32,437 bases of DNA, taken from IMG/VR virus record IMGVR_UViG_3300025645_000268, positions 1 through 32,437 of that record; one strand, written 5' to 3'. This document shows positions 19,386 through 31,561 of the stretch, piece by piece. The notes under the pieces are model-generated. The model saw nothing but the letters and a program-made list of their open reading frames with translations. It was not told where the DNA came from and ran no database searches. The DNA is from a virus. The translations under genes and the position numbers were made by a program. Numbering within the stretch: position 1 is the stretch's first letter; each line of letters starts with the position of its first letter.

Positions 19386-19590
19386 ATAGTATAACTATGT
19401 AGCTCTAACTACCATAGATTACTTAATACAGGGGTATAACTACTTACTAATACAAGAGTACTGTAGTATAACTATAGAGTCAAGCTATTTTCTTAAGTTA
19501 TAACTACTATAGTTTAACTATATCTAAGTCTAACTACTTATTTAGCTTAACTACTTCTAAGTTTTAACAACTAATAGTTTAACTATACCC
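19386..19590. repeat. Phased TAACTA array (iteron-like), ~16/32-bp period
   Basis: The hexamer TAACTA occurs at 19392, 19406, 19437, 19469, 19501, 19515, 19531, 19548 and 19580. The spacings are 14, 31, 32, 32, 14, 16, 17 and 32 bp, so nearly all copies lie on a grid of about 16 bp (one and a half helix turns). Better units read TAACTACTTA(C/T)T(A/T)A. Several are flanked by ATAGT, giving dyads like ATAGTxTAACTAT. Such arrays are typical of initiator or repressor binding sites. The binding protein is unknown. Confidence 0.6.
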
Positions 19591-25580: not shown

Positions 25581-25817
25581 ATGAAGACCCACATGATGAC
25601 TGGACTGCGCAACTTAGAAACCTACCTAGTCCGAGTGATAAAAGCACTGAACATCCTACTGAACGTGTTGCTGGGGGGTCACAGCCATCAGACAATCAGC
25701 GCAAGAAACCACCAAAGGAAGAGAGACGGTAAGTTAAACCTTGTGTTTCTTATTGACTTACTGTTCGGTAAAGGTCATACACTGCAAAGCTGGATAGCTT
25801 GGATAGAAAGGAGATGA
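25581..25817 (+). CDS. 78-aa protein with ARNHxRKRDGK motif
   Basis: This 78-residue protein contains a leucine-rich N-terminal half (LVRVIKALNILLNVLLGGHS) and the segment QTISARNHQRKRDGKLNLVF, then LIDLLFGKGHTLQSWIAWIE. The TxSARNxxRKRxGKxNLxxxIDxLFxxxHxxxSWxxW pattern is one I recognise from small phage proteins, so this frame is preferred over an overlapping one. It could be a membrane-associated protein. Its start (ATG 25581) is weakly supported. Its TGA precedes the recombinase start by 5 bp. Confidence 0.55.
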   Translation: MKTHMMTGLRNLETYLVRVIKALNILLNVLLGGHSHQTISARNHQRKRDGKLNLVFLIDLLFGKGHTLQSWIAWIERR

Positions 25818-25822
25818 CGCTC

Positions 25823-26749
25823 ATGCAAAAACACCACAAGGTAGACCTCAAGCCTACGACTAAGCTACGTAATGCCTGCGATCAGTACATGCGTAGCAGT
25901 ACGTATGCTCGACTGACCAGTGCAGTACAAGCTAAGTACGCTAGAACTCTACTGCGTGTGTGTGGTACTAAGGTACAGAATGCTGCTGAGTTAGGTAACA
26001 TGAGGCTGGCTGACATTAGGTACAAACATGTAACGTATGCCTATGACAGTTGGGCTGATAGTAACGGCCCCTCTGCTGCTAACTACATGGCTACATGCCT
26101 AAGCATTGTGCTTAACACCGCCATACGATACGAGGCTATCTCTGCTAACCCGGTTTCACTGCTACGCCGTAAGGTAGAGAAACCTCGCAGAGTTAAGTGG
26201 TCAAAGGATGACGTATCGTCATTCCTTACTACGGCCTATTCTGAGTGGAGGTGGCGTAGCATAGGGTTGATACTGCACATGGCCTATGAATGGGGTCAAC
26301 GTATAGGTGACATGCGCTTACTCAAGTGGGATGACATTGACTTTGACGCCCAGCGCGTTGACATCACACAGTCTAAGCGTGGCGCTGAGGTACACCTACC
26401 TGTACCTGACGACCTGTTAGCTATGCTTGAGGCACAGCGTGTAGACTTTGGCTTCCAAGAGTACGTAGCGCCACGTGTCAAGCCTAACCATAGTGGGTAC
26501 AGTCCTTACTCTGCCATTGAGATACACACACAGGTGAACAACATCAAAGCTAAGGCGGAACTAGACCCTAAGCTACAAGCCAGAGACCTGCGCCGTACTG
26601 CTATCACTGAGATGGCTGAGGCAGGGGTTGACCTTGTAGGTATCATGCAGGTTAGTGGACACCAGAACCCTAACAGTGTTACGCCTTACCTAGTCAATAC
26701 ATACAGTGGCGCATCAGCTGCACTATCAAAGAGGAGGGGAGATGAATGA
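25823..26749 (+). CDS. Tyrosine recombinase / integrase
   Basis: From ATG 25823 (AAAGGAG 9 bp upstream) the protein has 308 residues. It has an N-terminal SAM-like DNA-binding domain (STYARLTSAVQAKYARTLLR) and a catalytic domain. The catalytic domain has R160 (GQRIGDMRLLKW), K185 (QSKRGAEV), the RDLR box at 254-257 (normally HxxR), H280 (VSGHQNP) and the nucleophile Tyr at 289 or 294 (TPYLVNTYS). It would cut and join DNA at specific sites, for integration or for resolving replication products. No repressor or excisionase gene is visible here. Its stop overlaps the primase start. Confidence 0.8.
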   Translation: MQKHHKVDLKPTTKLRNACDQYMRSSTYARLTSAVQAKYARTLLRVCGTKVQNAAELGNMRLADIRYKHVTYAYDSWADSNGPSAANYMATCLSIVLNTAIRYEAISANPVSLLRRKVEKPRRVKWSKDDVSSFLTTAYSEWRWRSIGLILHMAYEWGQRIGDMRLLKWDDIDFDAQRVDITQSKRGAEVHLPVPDDLLAMLEAQRVDFGFQEYVAPRVKPNHSGYSPYSAIEIHTQVNNIKAKAELDPKLQARDLRRTAITEMAEAGVDLVGIMQVSGHQNPNSVTPYLVNTYSGASAALSKRRGDE

Positions 26750-28174: not shown

Positions 28175-28322
28175 GCGCATACCTATGAAGGGCGGTGATG
28201 AGTATGACGCTCTCACTAAAGCACGTAAGATCTACCTATGGAAGGCAGGTCAACTTAAGAAGATCAAACGTGCCTACAACAAAAGGTTTCGTAAACAGGG
28301 TAAGGAGAAACAGGATGAGTGA
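28167..28322 (+). CDS. 51-aa conserved basic phage peptide
   Basis: ATG 28167 to TGA 28322 encodes 51 residues: MSKRIPMKGGDEYDALTKAR, KIYLWKAGQLKKIKRAYNKR, FRKQGKEKQDE. The GDEYDAxTxxRxxxxWxxGxxKxIKRxYNKRxR pattern is very widespread in phages as I know it. Basic and helical, probably DNA- or RNA-binding. It overlaps both neighbours, supporting translational coupling. Function unknown. Confidence 0.65.
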   Translation: MSKRIPMKGGDEYDALTKARKIYLWKAGQLKKIKRAYNKRFRKQGKEKQDE

Positions 28323-28482
28323 CAAGGAACACTACGATGTCATCACCTTAATCATGCGAGAGGGTGTGCCAGAGCATTACAAAACAACCTTGTTCGGCAA
28401 CTACTCACCTGCTGTTGTCGTGCAGATAATGGTGGATTTATTAAGCTCATACCATAAGGTTTTTAAAGGAGAAACAGGATGA
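28315..28482 (+). CDS. 55-aa hypothetical protein
   Basis: ATG 28315 follows AAGGAGAAACAGG. The 55 residues are MSDKEHYDVITLIMREGVPE, HYKTTLFGNYSPAVVVQIMV, DLLSSYHKVFKGETG. Helical, with a conserved-looking KTTLFGNYSP turn. Longer starts upstream in frame lack a ribosome site. Its stop lies inside the next ATG (ATGA). Unknown function. Confidence 0.5.
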   Translation: MSDKEHYDVITLIMREGVPEHYKTTLFGNYSPAVVVQIMVDLLSSYHKVFKGETG

Positions 28483-28721
28483 TTAAATACACAGTAGAAG
28501 TATACGCCAATGGCACTAAGCAGTGGTTTCTTAACGGTAAGCGTCACCGTGAGGATGGTCCTGCGGTTGAATGGGCTGATGGGGATAAGGAGTGGTTTCT
28601 TGACGGTAAGCGTCTGACAGAACAAGAGCATAGGAAAGCCACAACTAAGTCTACCTGTGATGGCAAAGAAGTCGAGATTGATGGTGTTGTTTATGTCTTG
28701 ATGGAGAAACAAAATGATTGA
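28479..28721 (+). CDS. WYLNGK-repeat protein A (2 repeats)
   Basis: This is the first of three tandem paralogues, 80 residues. After MIKYTVEVYANGTKQWFLNG, the unit KRHREDGPAVEWADGDKEWF is followed by LDGKRLTEQEHRKATTKS and a C-terminal cap (CDGKEVEIDGVVYVL) shared by all three. The unit (about 23 residues, W(Y/F)LNGKxHREDGPAxExxxG) is MORN-like: short beta-hairpins that stack. The function in phages is unknown. A GGAGAAACAGG ribosome site overlaps the previous gene. Confidence 0.7.
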   Translation: MIKYTVEVYANGTKQWFLNGKRHREDGPAVEWADGDKEWFLDGKRLTEQEHRKATTKSTCDGKEVEIDGVVYVLMEKQND

Positions 28722-29163
28722 ATACACAGTAAAAGTCTACGCCAATGGCACTAAGTTTTGGTACCTAAATGGTAAGCGTCACCGTGAGGATGGTCCAGCT
28801 ATTGAATACACTGATGGCTCTAAGCTTTGGTACCTAAATGGTAAGTGTCACCGTGAGGATGGTCCAGCTATTGAATACACTGATGGCAATAAGTATTGGT
28901 ACCTAAATGGTAAGTGTCACCGTGAAGATGGTCCAGCTATTGAGGGGTCTGATGGTAGTAAGTCTTGGTACCTAAATGGTAAGCGTCACCGTGAAGATGG
29001 CCCGGCTGTTGAGTGGGCTAATGGCGATAAGTATTGGTATCTAAACAACAAGGGAATACCAGAACAAGAGCACAAGCTGGCTACTACTAAGGCTACCTGT
29101 GCTGGTAAAGAAGTCGTAATTGAGGGTGTTACTTATATATTGAAGGAAAAGAACAATGACTGA
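28714..29163 (+). CDS. WYLNGK-repeat protein B (5 repeats)
   Basis: This 149-residue paralogue has five units whose Trp codons begin at 28759, 28828, 28897, 28966 and 29035, exactly 69 bp (23 residues) apart. The units are nearly identical at DNA level in their first half (TGGTACCTAAATGGTAAG), showing recent expansion. The first four carry HREDGPA; the last changes to NNKGIPEQEH and leads to the common cap (CAGKEVVIEGVTYIL). Cys replaces Arg in two units (KCHRED). It overlaps protein A by 8 bp and protein C by 8 bp. Confidence 0.7.
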   Translation: MIEYTVKVYANGTKFWYLNGKRHREDGPAIEYTDGSKLWYLNGKCHREDGPAIEYTDGNKYWYLNGKCHREDGPAIEGSDGSKSWYLNGKRHREDGPAVEWANGDKYWYLNNKGIPEQEHKLATTKATCAGKEVVIEGVTYILKEKNND

Positions 29164-29485
29164 TAAAATGATTGAATACACAGTAAGGGTCTGCGCTAAT
29201 GGCGATAAGATTTGGTACCTAAATGATAAGCGTCACTGTGAAGATGGTCCTGCGATTGAGTTCGCTAATGGAGATAAGCTTTGGTACCTAAACGATAAGC
29301 TTCACCGTGAGGATGGCCCAGCTTGTGAGTGGGCTGATGGCTCTAAGCATTGGTACCTAAATGGTAAGTCTCTAACAGAACAAGAGCATAGGAAGGCCAC
29401 AACTAAGGCTACCTGTGATGGTAAAGAAGTCGAGATCGATGGCGTGACTTATGTCTTGAAGGAGAAAGGACAAGACGATGAGTGA
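29156..29485 (+). CDS. WYLNGK-repeat protein C (3 repeats)
   Basis: This 109-residue third paralogue has three units: ANGDKIWYLNDKRHCEDGPA, ANGDKLWYLNDKLHREDGPA, ADGSKHWYLNGKSLTEQEH, then the cap CDGKEVEIDGVTYVL. The cap DNA is almost identical to that of protein A, while the first repeats differ, which fits gene conversion or shuffling. ATG 29156 is used here; ATG 29168 gives a version starting MIEYTVRV as in A and B. The function is unknown. Confidence 0.68.
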   Translation: MTDKMIEYTVRVCANGDKIWYLNDKRHCEDGPAIEFANGDKLWYLNDKLHREDGPACEWADGSKHWYLNGKSLTEQEHRKATTKATCDGKEVEIDGVTYVLKEKGQDDE

Positions 29486-30104: not shown

Positions 30105-30283
30105 GGGATAGACCAATTAGCGATAACCCATCGGGAATGTACTGCCCATCTTGTCGGGCTGTAGGTCTATCGCATTGCAGTGACCCCAAGCATTGCGGCG
30201 GTATGCAGCCTATGGCCCCGACTTTTCCAAAGGAGGATGCCAAACGTATCCTCGCAGAACTGAAAGGACAATACGATGGGTAA
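30101..30283 (+). CDS. 60-aa Cys-rich protein, zinc-ribbon candidate
   Basis: The 60 residues MRDRPISDNPSGMYCPSCRA, VGLSHCSDPKHCGGMQPMAP, TFPKEDAKRILAELKGQYDG contain CPSC (15-18), C26 and C32 in a short zinc-knuckle-like arrangement. A C-terminal helix follows. It starts in the previous stop (ATGA) and its end overlaps the next gene by 8 bp. Still in the G+C-rich stretch. Function unknown. Confidence 0.5.
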   Translation: MRDRPISDNPSGMYCPSCRAVGLSHCSDPKHCGGMQPMAPTFPKEDAKRILAELKGQYDG

Positions 30284-30608
30284 CTTCTATCGCCCAGACA
30301 ACTGGGTAGTCATTAAGCTTGATGACGGTAATGACCCTCACTATCGTGTACTGGCAGGTTGGTCAGGCGGTTATCTTGACGGTAACTCTTGGCGTATGAA
30401 CAGCGGTATCACTGAAGTAAATGAGACAGATGATTACTATTATTTCAAGGGTTCTAGTGGGTCTGAATATCGTTGCGGTAAAGGCTCTTACATGCTAAGG
30501 ATGAACACTGCTGGTACTTGGGCACGACTTCAAGAGCTGCATGGCGATAAAGTTGAAATGATGCCAGAAGATACTGACTGGTCTAACATGGATTGGATTA
30601 TATCATGA
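30276..30608 (+). CDS. 110-aa beta-rich early protein
   Basis: This 110-residue protein follows AAAGGACAATACG. Its parts are MGNFYRPDNWVVIKLDDGND, PHYRVLAGWSGGYLDGNSWR, MNSGITEVNETDDYYYFKGS. The segment YRVLAGWSGGYLDGNSWRMNSGI is a recurring phage sequence in my memory (no known job), followed by SSGSEYRCGKGSYMLR. Trp/Tyr-rich beta barrel by eye. It overlaps the next gene. Confidence 0.6.
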   Translation: MGNFYRPDNWVVIKLDDGNDPHYRVLAGWSGGYLDGNSWRMNSGITEVNETDDYYYFKGSSGSEYRCGKGSYMLRMNTAGTWARLQELHGDKVEMMPEDTDWSNMDWIIS

Positions 30609-31183: not shown

Positions 31184-31367
31184 TATTAGTATGTGTAACA
31201 GCTTAACCTGTCCGCTTAAACATAAGTGTTACCGCAATCCCGCTAGTGGTACGCAGCCAAGTGAGTTTATGCAGTCTTACTTTATGCTAACGGAGGAATG
31301 GGGTGAAGACTGTAAGTATTACTGGCCAGTGAAGGGTACAATAGAAGATAAAGGAGAAACAAAATGA
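31176..31367 (+). CDS. Cys-rich 63-aa protein (CNS-CP-CYR)
   Basis: The 63 residues MPDISMCNSLTCPLKHKCYR, NPASGTQPSEFMQSYFMLTE, EWGEDCKYYWPVKGTIEDKG hold C7, C12, C18 and C46. The pattern MCxxxxCPxxxxCYRxxAxPxxxxQSYF...CxYYW is widespread in phages and probably binds a metal. It ends with AAAGGAGAAACAAAATGA, one of the recurring junction sequences. Confidence 0.6.
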   Translation: MPDISMCNSLTCPLKHKCYRNPASGTQPSEFMQSYFMLTEEWGEDCKYYWPVKGTIEDKGETK

Positions 31368-31561
31368 CTAACGAAGTAGGTACAATAAAAGTCACATCCT
31401 TGACTGAACACGGAGACGGTAGTGCTACCGTAGAGTTTGATATGGATGACACCACAGCAGCACTAGTACGAGAACTAGGACTGAAGCTCCTGATTTACTG
31501 TGGTGCCACAGGGACAAACTTGGACTATGTGTTCGAGTCAATCTTAGGAGAGACGGAATGA
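31364..31561 (+). CDS. 65-aa conserved acidic protein
   Basis: It starts in the previous stop. The 65 residues are MTNEVGTIKVTSLTEHGDGS, ATVEFDMDDTTAALVRELGL, KLLIYCGATGTNLDYVFESI. GSATVEFDMDxxTxxxLxxxGLxxLIxCGA is a block seen across phages. A strand pair followed by helix. Unknown function. Stop overlaps the next ATG. Confidence 0.6.
   Translation: MTNEVGTIKVTSLTEHGDGSATVEFDMDDTTAALVRELGLKLLIYCGATGTNLDYVFESILGETE

What the first reader, a model, noticed from the sequence alone, without database searches (positions are those of the whole stretch)
28479..29485. Three tandem genes made of a 23-residue WYLNGK repeat, with 2, 5 and 3 units
The paralogues share a leader, a repeat unit of exactly 69 bp in gene B, and a common C-terminal cap. 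Repeats are almost identical in their first half and differ in copy number; the cap DNA of A and C is nearly the same. This points to recent duplication and unequal crossing-over. Fast repeat change in an early phage gene suggests a target under arms-race pressure, such as host defence, but that is inference.
Basis: partly seen in the sequence, partly recalled or inferred. Interest (0 to 1): 0.7.

Follow-up and report, generated by a model that had tools for sequence, protein, structure and literature searches.

The report
Fast-changing MORN-like repeat genes in phages
Three neighbouring genes in a marine virus of bacteria encode proteins built from a 23-residue unit that is predicted to fold like the MORN protein-binding repeats of eukaryotes; related phages carry different numbers of genes and units, and a few positions in each unit are under selection to keep changing, which suggests, but does not prove, that they bind a target that changes in turn.

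Summary
In detail: genes A (28479-28721), B (28714-29163) and C (29156-29485) have 2, 5 and 3 units of a 23-aa/69-bp repeat, a shared leader and a shared cap. The repeat belongs to a large, unnamed family: 77 IMG/VR loci, 75 loci from bacterial genome contigs, and giant viruses. No Pfam, NCBIfam or PHROG model describes it and no held paper prints its motif. AlphaFold2 models B with confidence (pLDDT 92); the nine best Foldseek PDB hits are all MORN-repeat proteins, although canonical MORN signatures are mostly missing. Copy number changes fast: four pairs of near-identical phage contigs differ almost only by losses of 138, 207 and 483 bp (2, 3 and 7 units) or of whole repeat genes. Six positions per unit show pN/pS 2.6 (95% 2.2-3.4) against 0.29 for the framework and about 1 in a neutral simulation. 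All 53 relatives found through the primase gene lack the repeats near it; the cassette lies in a 3-kb accessory block bounded by a repeated start-site sequence. Best reading: diversifying MORN-like binding proteins of the replication region, recombined by unequal crossing-over and probably aimed at changing partners, perhaps host defence. Binding, target and expression time are untested.

The parts
28479..28721 (+). gene A, 80 aa, 2 units
   Evidence: ORF; unit count
28714..29163 (+). gene B, 149 aa, 5 units (phase 28738, 69 bp each); modelled with pLDDT 92
29156..29485 (+). gene C, 109 aa, 3 units; AAGGA lies 8 bases before the ATG at 29156
28617..28721 (+). C-terminal cap of A (TEQEH...CDGKEVEIDGVVYVL)
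29059..29163 (+). C-terminal cap of B
29375..29485 (+). C-terminal cap of C
28304..28318 (+). linker GGAGAAACAGGATGA (ribosome-binding site plus start of the 55-aa ORF); homology to relatives L138 and L095 ends at 28322 and 28318
28468..28482 (+). same linker at the start of gene A
28703..28717 (+). same linker at the start of gene B
31353..31367 (+). same linker at the far edge of the accessory block; L138 joins the 51-aa gene directly to the homologue of the gene at 31364
28315..28482 (+). 55-aa ORF between the 51-aa gene and gene A; similar sequence found in L134 only
30276..30608 (+). 110-aa gene seen in four other repeat-bearing loci (L001, L011, L045, L146) and in no fetched locus without repeats

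Best explanation
A, B and C are members of a phage-borne family of solenoid proteins made of MORN-like beta-hairpin units. Each unit has a conserved framework (G-x-K-x-WYLNGK-x-HREDGPA-x-E) and about six variable positions. Shown: the repeats, the unit and gene copy-number differences between near-identical phage contigs, the excess of amino-acid change at the variable positions; predicted with confidence: the fold. Inferred: the variable positions form a binding surface (spacing of i, i+2 in predicted strands would fit one face), recombination between units and paralogues reshuffles that surface, and the proteins bind rapidly changing partners, most likely host proteins such as defence or takeover targets, when the replication region is expressed.
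For: Fold: pLDDT 92; nine best Foldseek PDB hits all MORN proteins, E 2e-5 to 4e-4. MORN repeats are described as protein-protein interaction modules with 23-residue units (PMC7725318). Period 23 in 516 of 531 spacings. Diversification: pN/pS at six positions 2.61 (2.16-3.40) over 42 loci, rest of the unit 0.29, neutral simulation 0.93-1.12; in the window itself pN/pS 0.487/0.150 against 0.040/0.409. Indels of 138, 207, 428, 483 and 570 bp in repeat genes, with 0-2 mismatches elsewhere in L017/L019, L043/L048 and L046/L047. Arrays of many genes per locus. Not seen in 53 relatives' loci or in 30 relatives' records. Neighbours in other phages: thymidylate synthase, exonuclease, RNA ligase, sigma factor, ribonucleotide reductase.
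Against: No partner, phenotype or expression data. Foldseek TM-scores are modest (about 0.43 of the query), and VIA-align Z-scores for MORN chains (up to 7.5-7.8) are no higher than for other single-layer beta sheets. Bacterial copies show no constant neighbour that would name a function. Short-read assembly can miscount tandem repeats.
Confidence: 0.5

Rival explanations
1. Scaffold or tether for nucleotide-metabolism enzymes: the repeat docks or joins ThyX, MazG and DUF3310 proteins during phage DNA synthesis.
For: Fusions to DUF3310 at either end (L012 and L024 C-terminal, L067 N-terminal) and to MazG (L024); thymidylate synthase is the commonest neighbour family; the repeat gene of P12053L lies one gene after thyX.
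Against: Only a few fusions among 200 proteins; would not call for pN/pS above 2 or copy-number turnover; most loci have no such enzyme adjacent.
Confidence: 0.17
2. Phage-phage competition or superinfection exclusion: the diversified surface binds proteins of co-infecting phages or host receptors.
For: Diversification and paralogue arrays fit any arms race.
Against: No direct evidence; secretion or membrane signals were not examined systematically.
Confidence: 0.13
3. Virion or adsorption part.
For: Repeat-number change is known in phage fibres (general knowledge, not tested here).
Against: Genes lie among replication/nucleotide genes away from the structural arm; in the PA5oct record two neighbours carry ESI-MS/MS notes and the repeat protein gp156 does not, a weak negative.
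Confidence: 0.08
4. Unselected expansion of a selfish repeat; copy change is drift, and part of it assembly error.
For: Tandem repeats recombine and misassemble readily.
Against: Framework pN/pS 0.26-0.29 and variable positions above 2; reading frame, leader and cap are kept; two separate contigs, L048 and L049, hold the same longer allele.
Confidence: 0.06

Closest known systems
MORN repeats (TbMORN1, TgMORN1, PfMORN1, MORN4; PMC7725318)
   Same: 23-residue period, beta-hairpin units in a solenoid, a GxG-like turn (here G-P-A), a turn glycine and an NGKxH stretch; best PDB fold matches
   Different: No YEGEW or LxY signature; Pfam's MORN_2 model reaches only 19-20 bits against a cut-off of 29.6, in two other family members and not in A, B or C
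DUF6745 (PF20530)
   Same: One unit-sized stretch (profile positions about 62-87 of 206) matches the repeat; several family members pass the cut-off, B misses it by 0.2 bits
   Different: The match covers one unit of a 206-position domain, so it looks like a shared motif and not the same domain
T4 tifA amplification against ToxIN (PMC9391042)
   Same: Works like it in one respect: a phage gene changes copy number through recombination between short homologies
   Different: tifA is a known toxin inhibitor; no target is known here, and here units within a gene change too
Hypothetical proteins of Celeribacter phage P12053L (P12053L_09), Agrobacterium phage Atu_ph07 and giant viruses such as mimivirus R871
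   Same: Same repeat or predicted fold
   Different: P12053L has one gene with 3 units; none has a known function

Membership tests
MORN / MORN_2 (PF07661) | Pfam match above the curated cut-off | tested here: not met
   A, B, C: not among hits at E<=1; two other members 18.8 and 20 bits against 29.6
MORN / MORN_2 (PF07661) | 23-residue repeat period | tested here: met
   516 of 531 spacings
MORN / MORN_2 (PF07661) | beta-hairpin solenoid fold | tested here: met
   Predicted model only, pLDDT 92; nine best Foldseek hits all MORN; VIA-align does not single MORN out
MORN / MORN_2 (PF07661) | GxG, LxY and YEGEW signature (PMC7725318) | tested here: not met
   Consensus of 676 distinct units has GPA and WYLNGK instead (compared)
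DUF6745 (PF20530) | match over most of the domain above cut-off | tested here: not met
   About 20-30 of 206 positions; B 26.8 bits against 27
Known anti-phage defence proteins (PADLOC) | match to a PADLOC model | tested here: not met
   No hit for A, B, C at E<=0.1
Phage anti-defence protein | inhibits a host defence system | not testable with these tools
   needs a plaque assay

The most novel reading that the evidence does not exclude
A widespread viral system of recombining MORN-like recognition proteins: conserved scaffold units with a diversified surface, gained, lost and reshuffled as units and as genes, used by phages (and perhaps giant viruses) to track changing host or rival proteins, somewhat as repeat-based recognition proteins do in cells.
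Probability: 0.35. Interest if true: 0.85.

Novelty: new variant of a known kind. Interest (0 to 1): 0.62.

Why it matters
If right, a common but unnamed phage gene family is a natural library of diversified binding proteins whose targets could be found by simple pull-downs, and it would add a MORN-like scaffold to the phage protein families that diversify by unit recombination. It also gives a ready experimental test of how phages keep pace with variation in their hosts or rivals.

Tried and rejected
Diversity-generating retroelement: substitutions at variable codons are spread over all base pairs and mostly codon positions 1-2, not adenine-centred; reverse transcriptases were not searched for separately. 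Polymorphic-toxin immunity (YwqK-like) reading: no NCBIfam match of that kind, and no polymorphic toxin among the 25 neighbour families of bacterial copies that were shown, of 54 found. Fused N-terminal domain of L052/L073 (motif GTxWCTA): model too poor to search (pLDDT 47). The 52 differences between the L026 group and L058 are explained by a 138-bp deletion; L058 starts at the edge of the gene, so it is the weakest pair. Literature: no held paper prints WYLNGK or HREDGPA; the jumbo-phage survey and the Atu_ph07 paper do not mention MORN. Limits of the selection test: framework pN/pS is lowered by the pattern used to find units, and the six positions were chosen after seeing their variability; the neutral simulation addresses counting bias only.

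Full report
What is there. The window is a 32,437-bp IMG/VR virus record. It shares portal/terminase DNA with Roseobacter phages CRP-207, CRP-603 and CRP-2 and, near its right end, two pieces at 83% with Celeribacter phage P12053L. Genes A, B and C overlap by 8 bp and encode 80, 149 and 109 aa with 2, 5 and 3 units. Tandem Repeats Finder reports period 69 in B and C. The periodicity is far beyond chance: self-identity 0.84 at 69 bp against a maximum of 0.43 in codon shuffles.

The family. Pfam, PHROGs and NCBIfam give no convincing model for the repeat. In 50,697 phage records only a handful match: P12053L, Atu_ph07, PA5oct-like jumbo phages and uncultured jumbo phages. In IMG/VR, 145 stretches encode relatives, of which 77 loci were kept. 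They hold 200 distinct complete proteins by my pattern, often as tandem arrays; L051 has about ten repeat genes in a row. The spacing of the core motif is 23 in 516 of 531 cases. A scan of bacterial and archaeal genome contigs gave 75 loci, many from Alphaproteobacteria MAGs and some from isolates; their neighbours show no constant partner. Fold matches also include giant-virus proteins. Caps differ between phages, but members of one array generally share leader and cap, as expected from expansion within a genome. A few members are fused to DUF3310 (at either end) or MazG.

Fold. AlphaFold2 with 27 family members gives pLDDT 92, pTM 0.74. The nine best Foldseek hits in the PDB are MORN-repeat proteins (E 2e-5 to 4e-4), with radial-spoke chains next. 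VIA-align gives middling Z for MORN and for other single-layer sheets alike, so the claim rests on Foldseek, the 23-residue period and partial motif agreement (GPA for GxG, turn glycine, NGKxH) with the structural definition of the MORN repeat. The canonical YEGEW/LxY signature is missing, so I call it MORN-like, not a MORN member.

Change. Four pairs of contigs are nearly identical except inside the repeat genes. L017 lacks 428 bp, that is one whole gene, relative to L019, with 1 other mismatch in 10 kb. L043 lacks 207 bp (3 units) relative to L048 and L049, with no mismatch. L047 lacks 570 bp (one gene) and 483 bp (7 units) relative to L046, with 2 mismatches. L058 lacks 138 bp (2 units) relative to L026; its contig starts at the edge of the gene, so this pair is weaker. 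Phages that share thyX, the 110-aa gene or the sigma factor with the window carry other numbers: P12053L one gene (3 units), L045 three (2, 2, 4), L059 two (4, 3), L061 one (4), L011 one (5). Assembly error can mimic such changes, so long reads are needed.

Selection. Over 676 distinct units the framework is nearly invariant and six positions (-14, -13, -10, -8, -1, +7 from the H of HRED) vary most. Among unit pairs within a locus differing by at most 8 bases, pN/pS is 2.61 at these positions (bootstrap by locus 2.16-3.40, 42 loci) and 0.29 elsewhere; synonymous change is alike in both (0.093, 0.111). A neutral simulation gives 0.93-1.12. In the window the figures are 0.487/0.150 and 0.040/0.409. 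Positions were picked by their variability and units by their framework, so the contrast is partly built in; but relaxed constraint alone would give a ratio near 1, not well above it.

Mobility. A scan with the window's primase found 53 loci at 47-97% identity; none shows a repeat gene near it, and 30 of the source records have no match anywhere to the same query that finds the window. Many of these records are fragments. L138, from the relative with 97% primase identity, matches the window to 28322 and then continues with the homologue of the gene at 31364; L095 stops matching at 28318. Both edges of the 3-kb block carry GGAGAAACARRATGA, which occurs exactly four times in the window (28304, 28468, 28703, 31353; 0.16 matches expected even with up to two mismatches). 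This start-site sequence is a plausible place for modular recombination; that it was used is inferred.

Function. The neighbours in other phages are replication and nucleotide genes, and in cobaviruses ThyX and MazG sit on the replication arm. I therefore favour intracellular binding proteins made in the replication phase. Diversifying selection and turnover point to changing partners; host defence is one candidate. T4's tifA shows that phages do meet a defence by recombining gene copies, but that is an analogy. No target, phenotype or timing is shown.

Noticed in passing
19494-19587: AT-rich tandem array (period 17/33) in the gap between the minus-strand structural arm and the plus-strand replication arm; possible promoter or origin region.
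   Followed up: no
L051 2379-3047: One repeat protein starts with about 68 residues that look like the N-terminus of a ribonucleotide reductase small subunit (recognised from memory, not confirmed by Pfam).
   Followed up: partly
L052 and L073, N-terminal regions of the repeat proteins: A fused 180-290-residue region with motif GTxWCTA, shared with phrog_17056 and phrog_28193 of unknown function; model quality too low to search.
   Followed up: partly
window 31364-31561: 65-aa gene whose stretch hgDGSATxxfDM resembles the C-terminal part of repeat proteins in L013 and L056 (seen by eye).
   Followed up: no
window 25799-26749: Integrase-family gene (Phage_integrase, E 6e-22) with a TTG start, beside primase and ThyX genes.
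   Followed up: no
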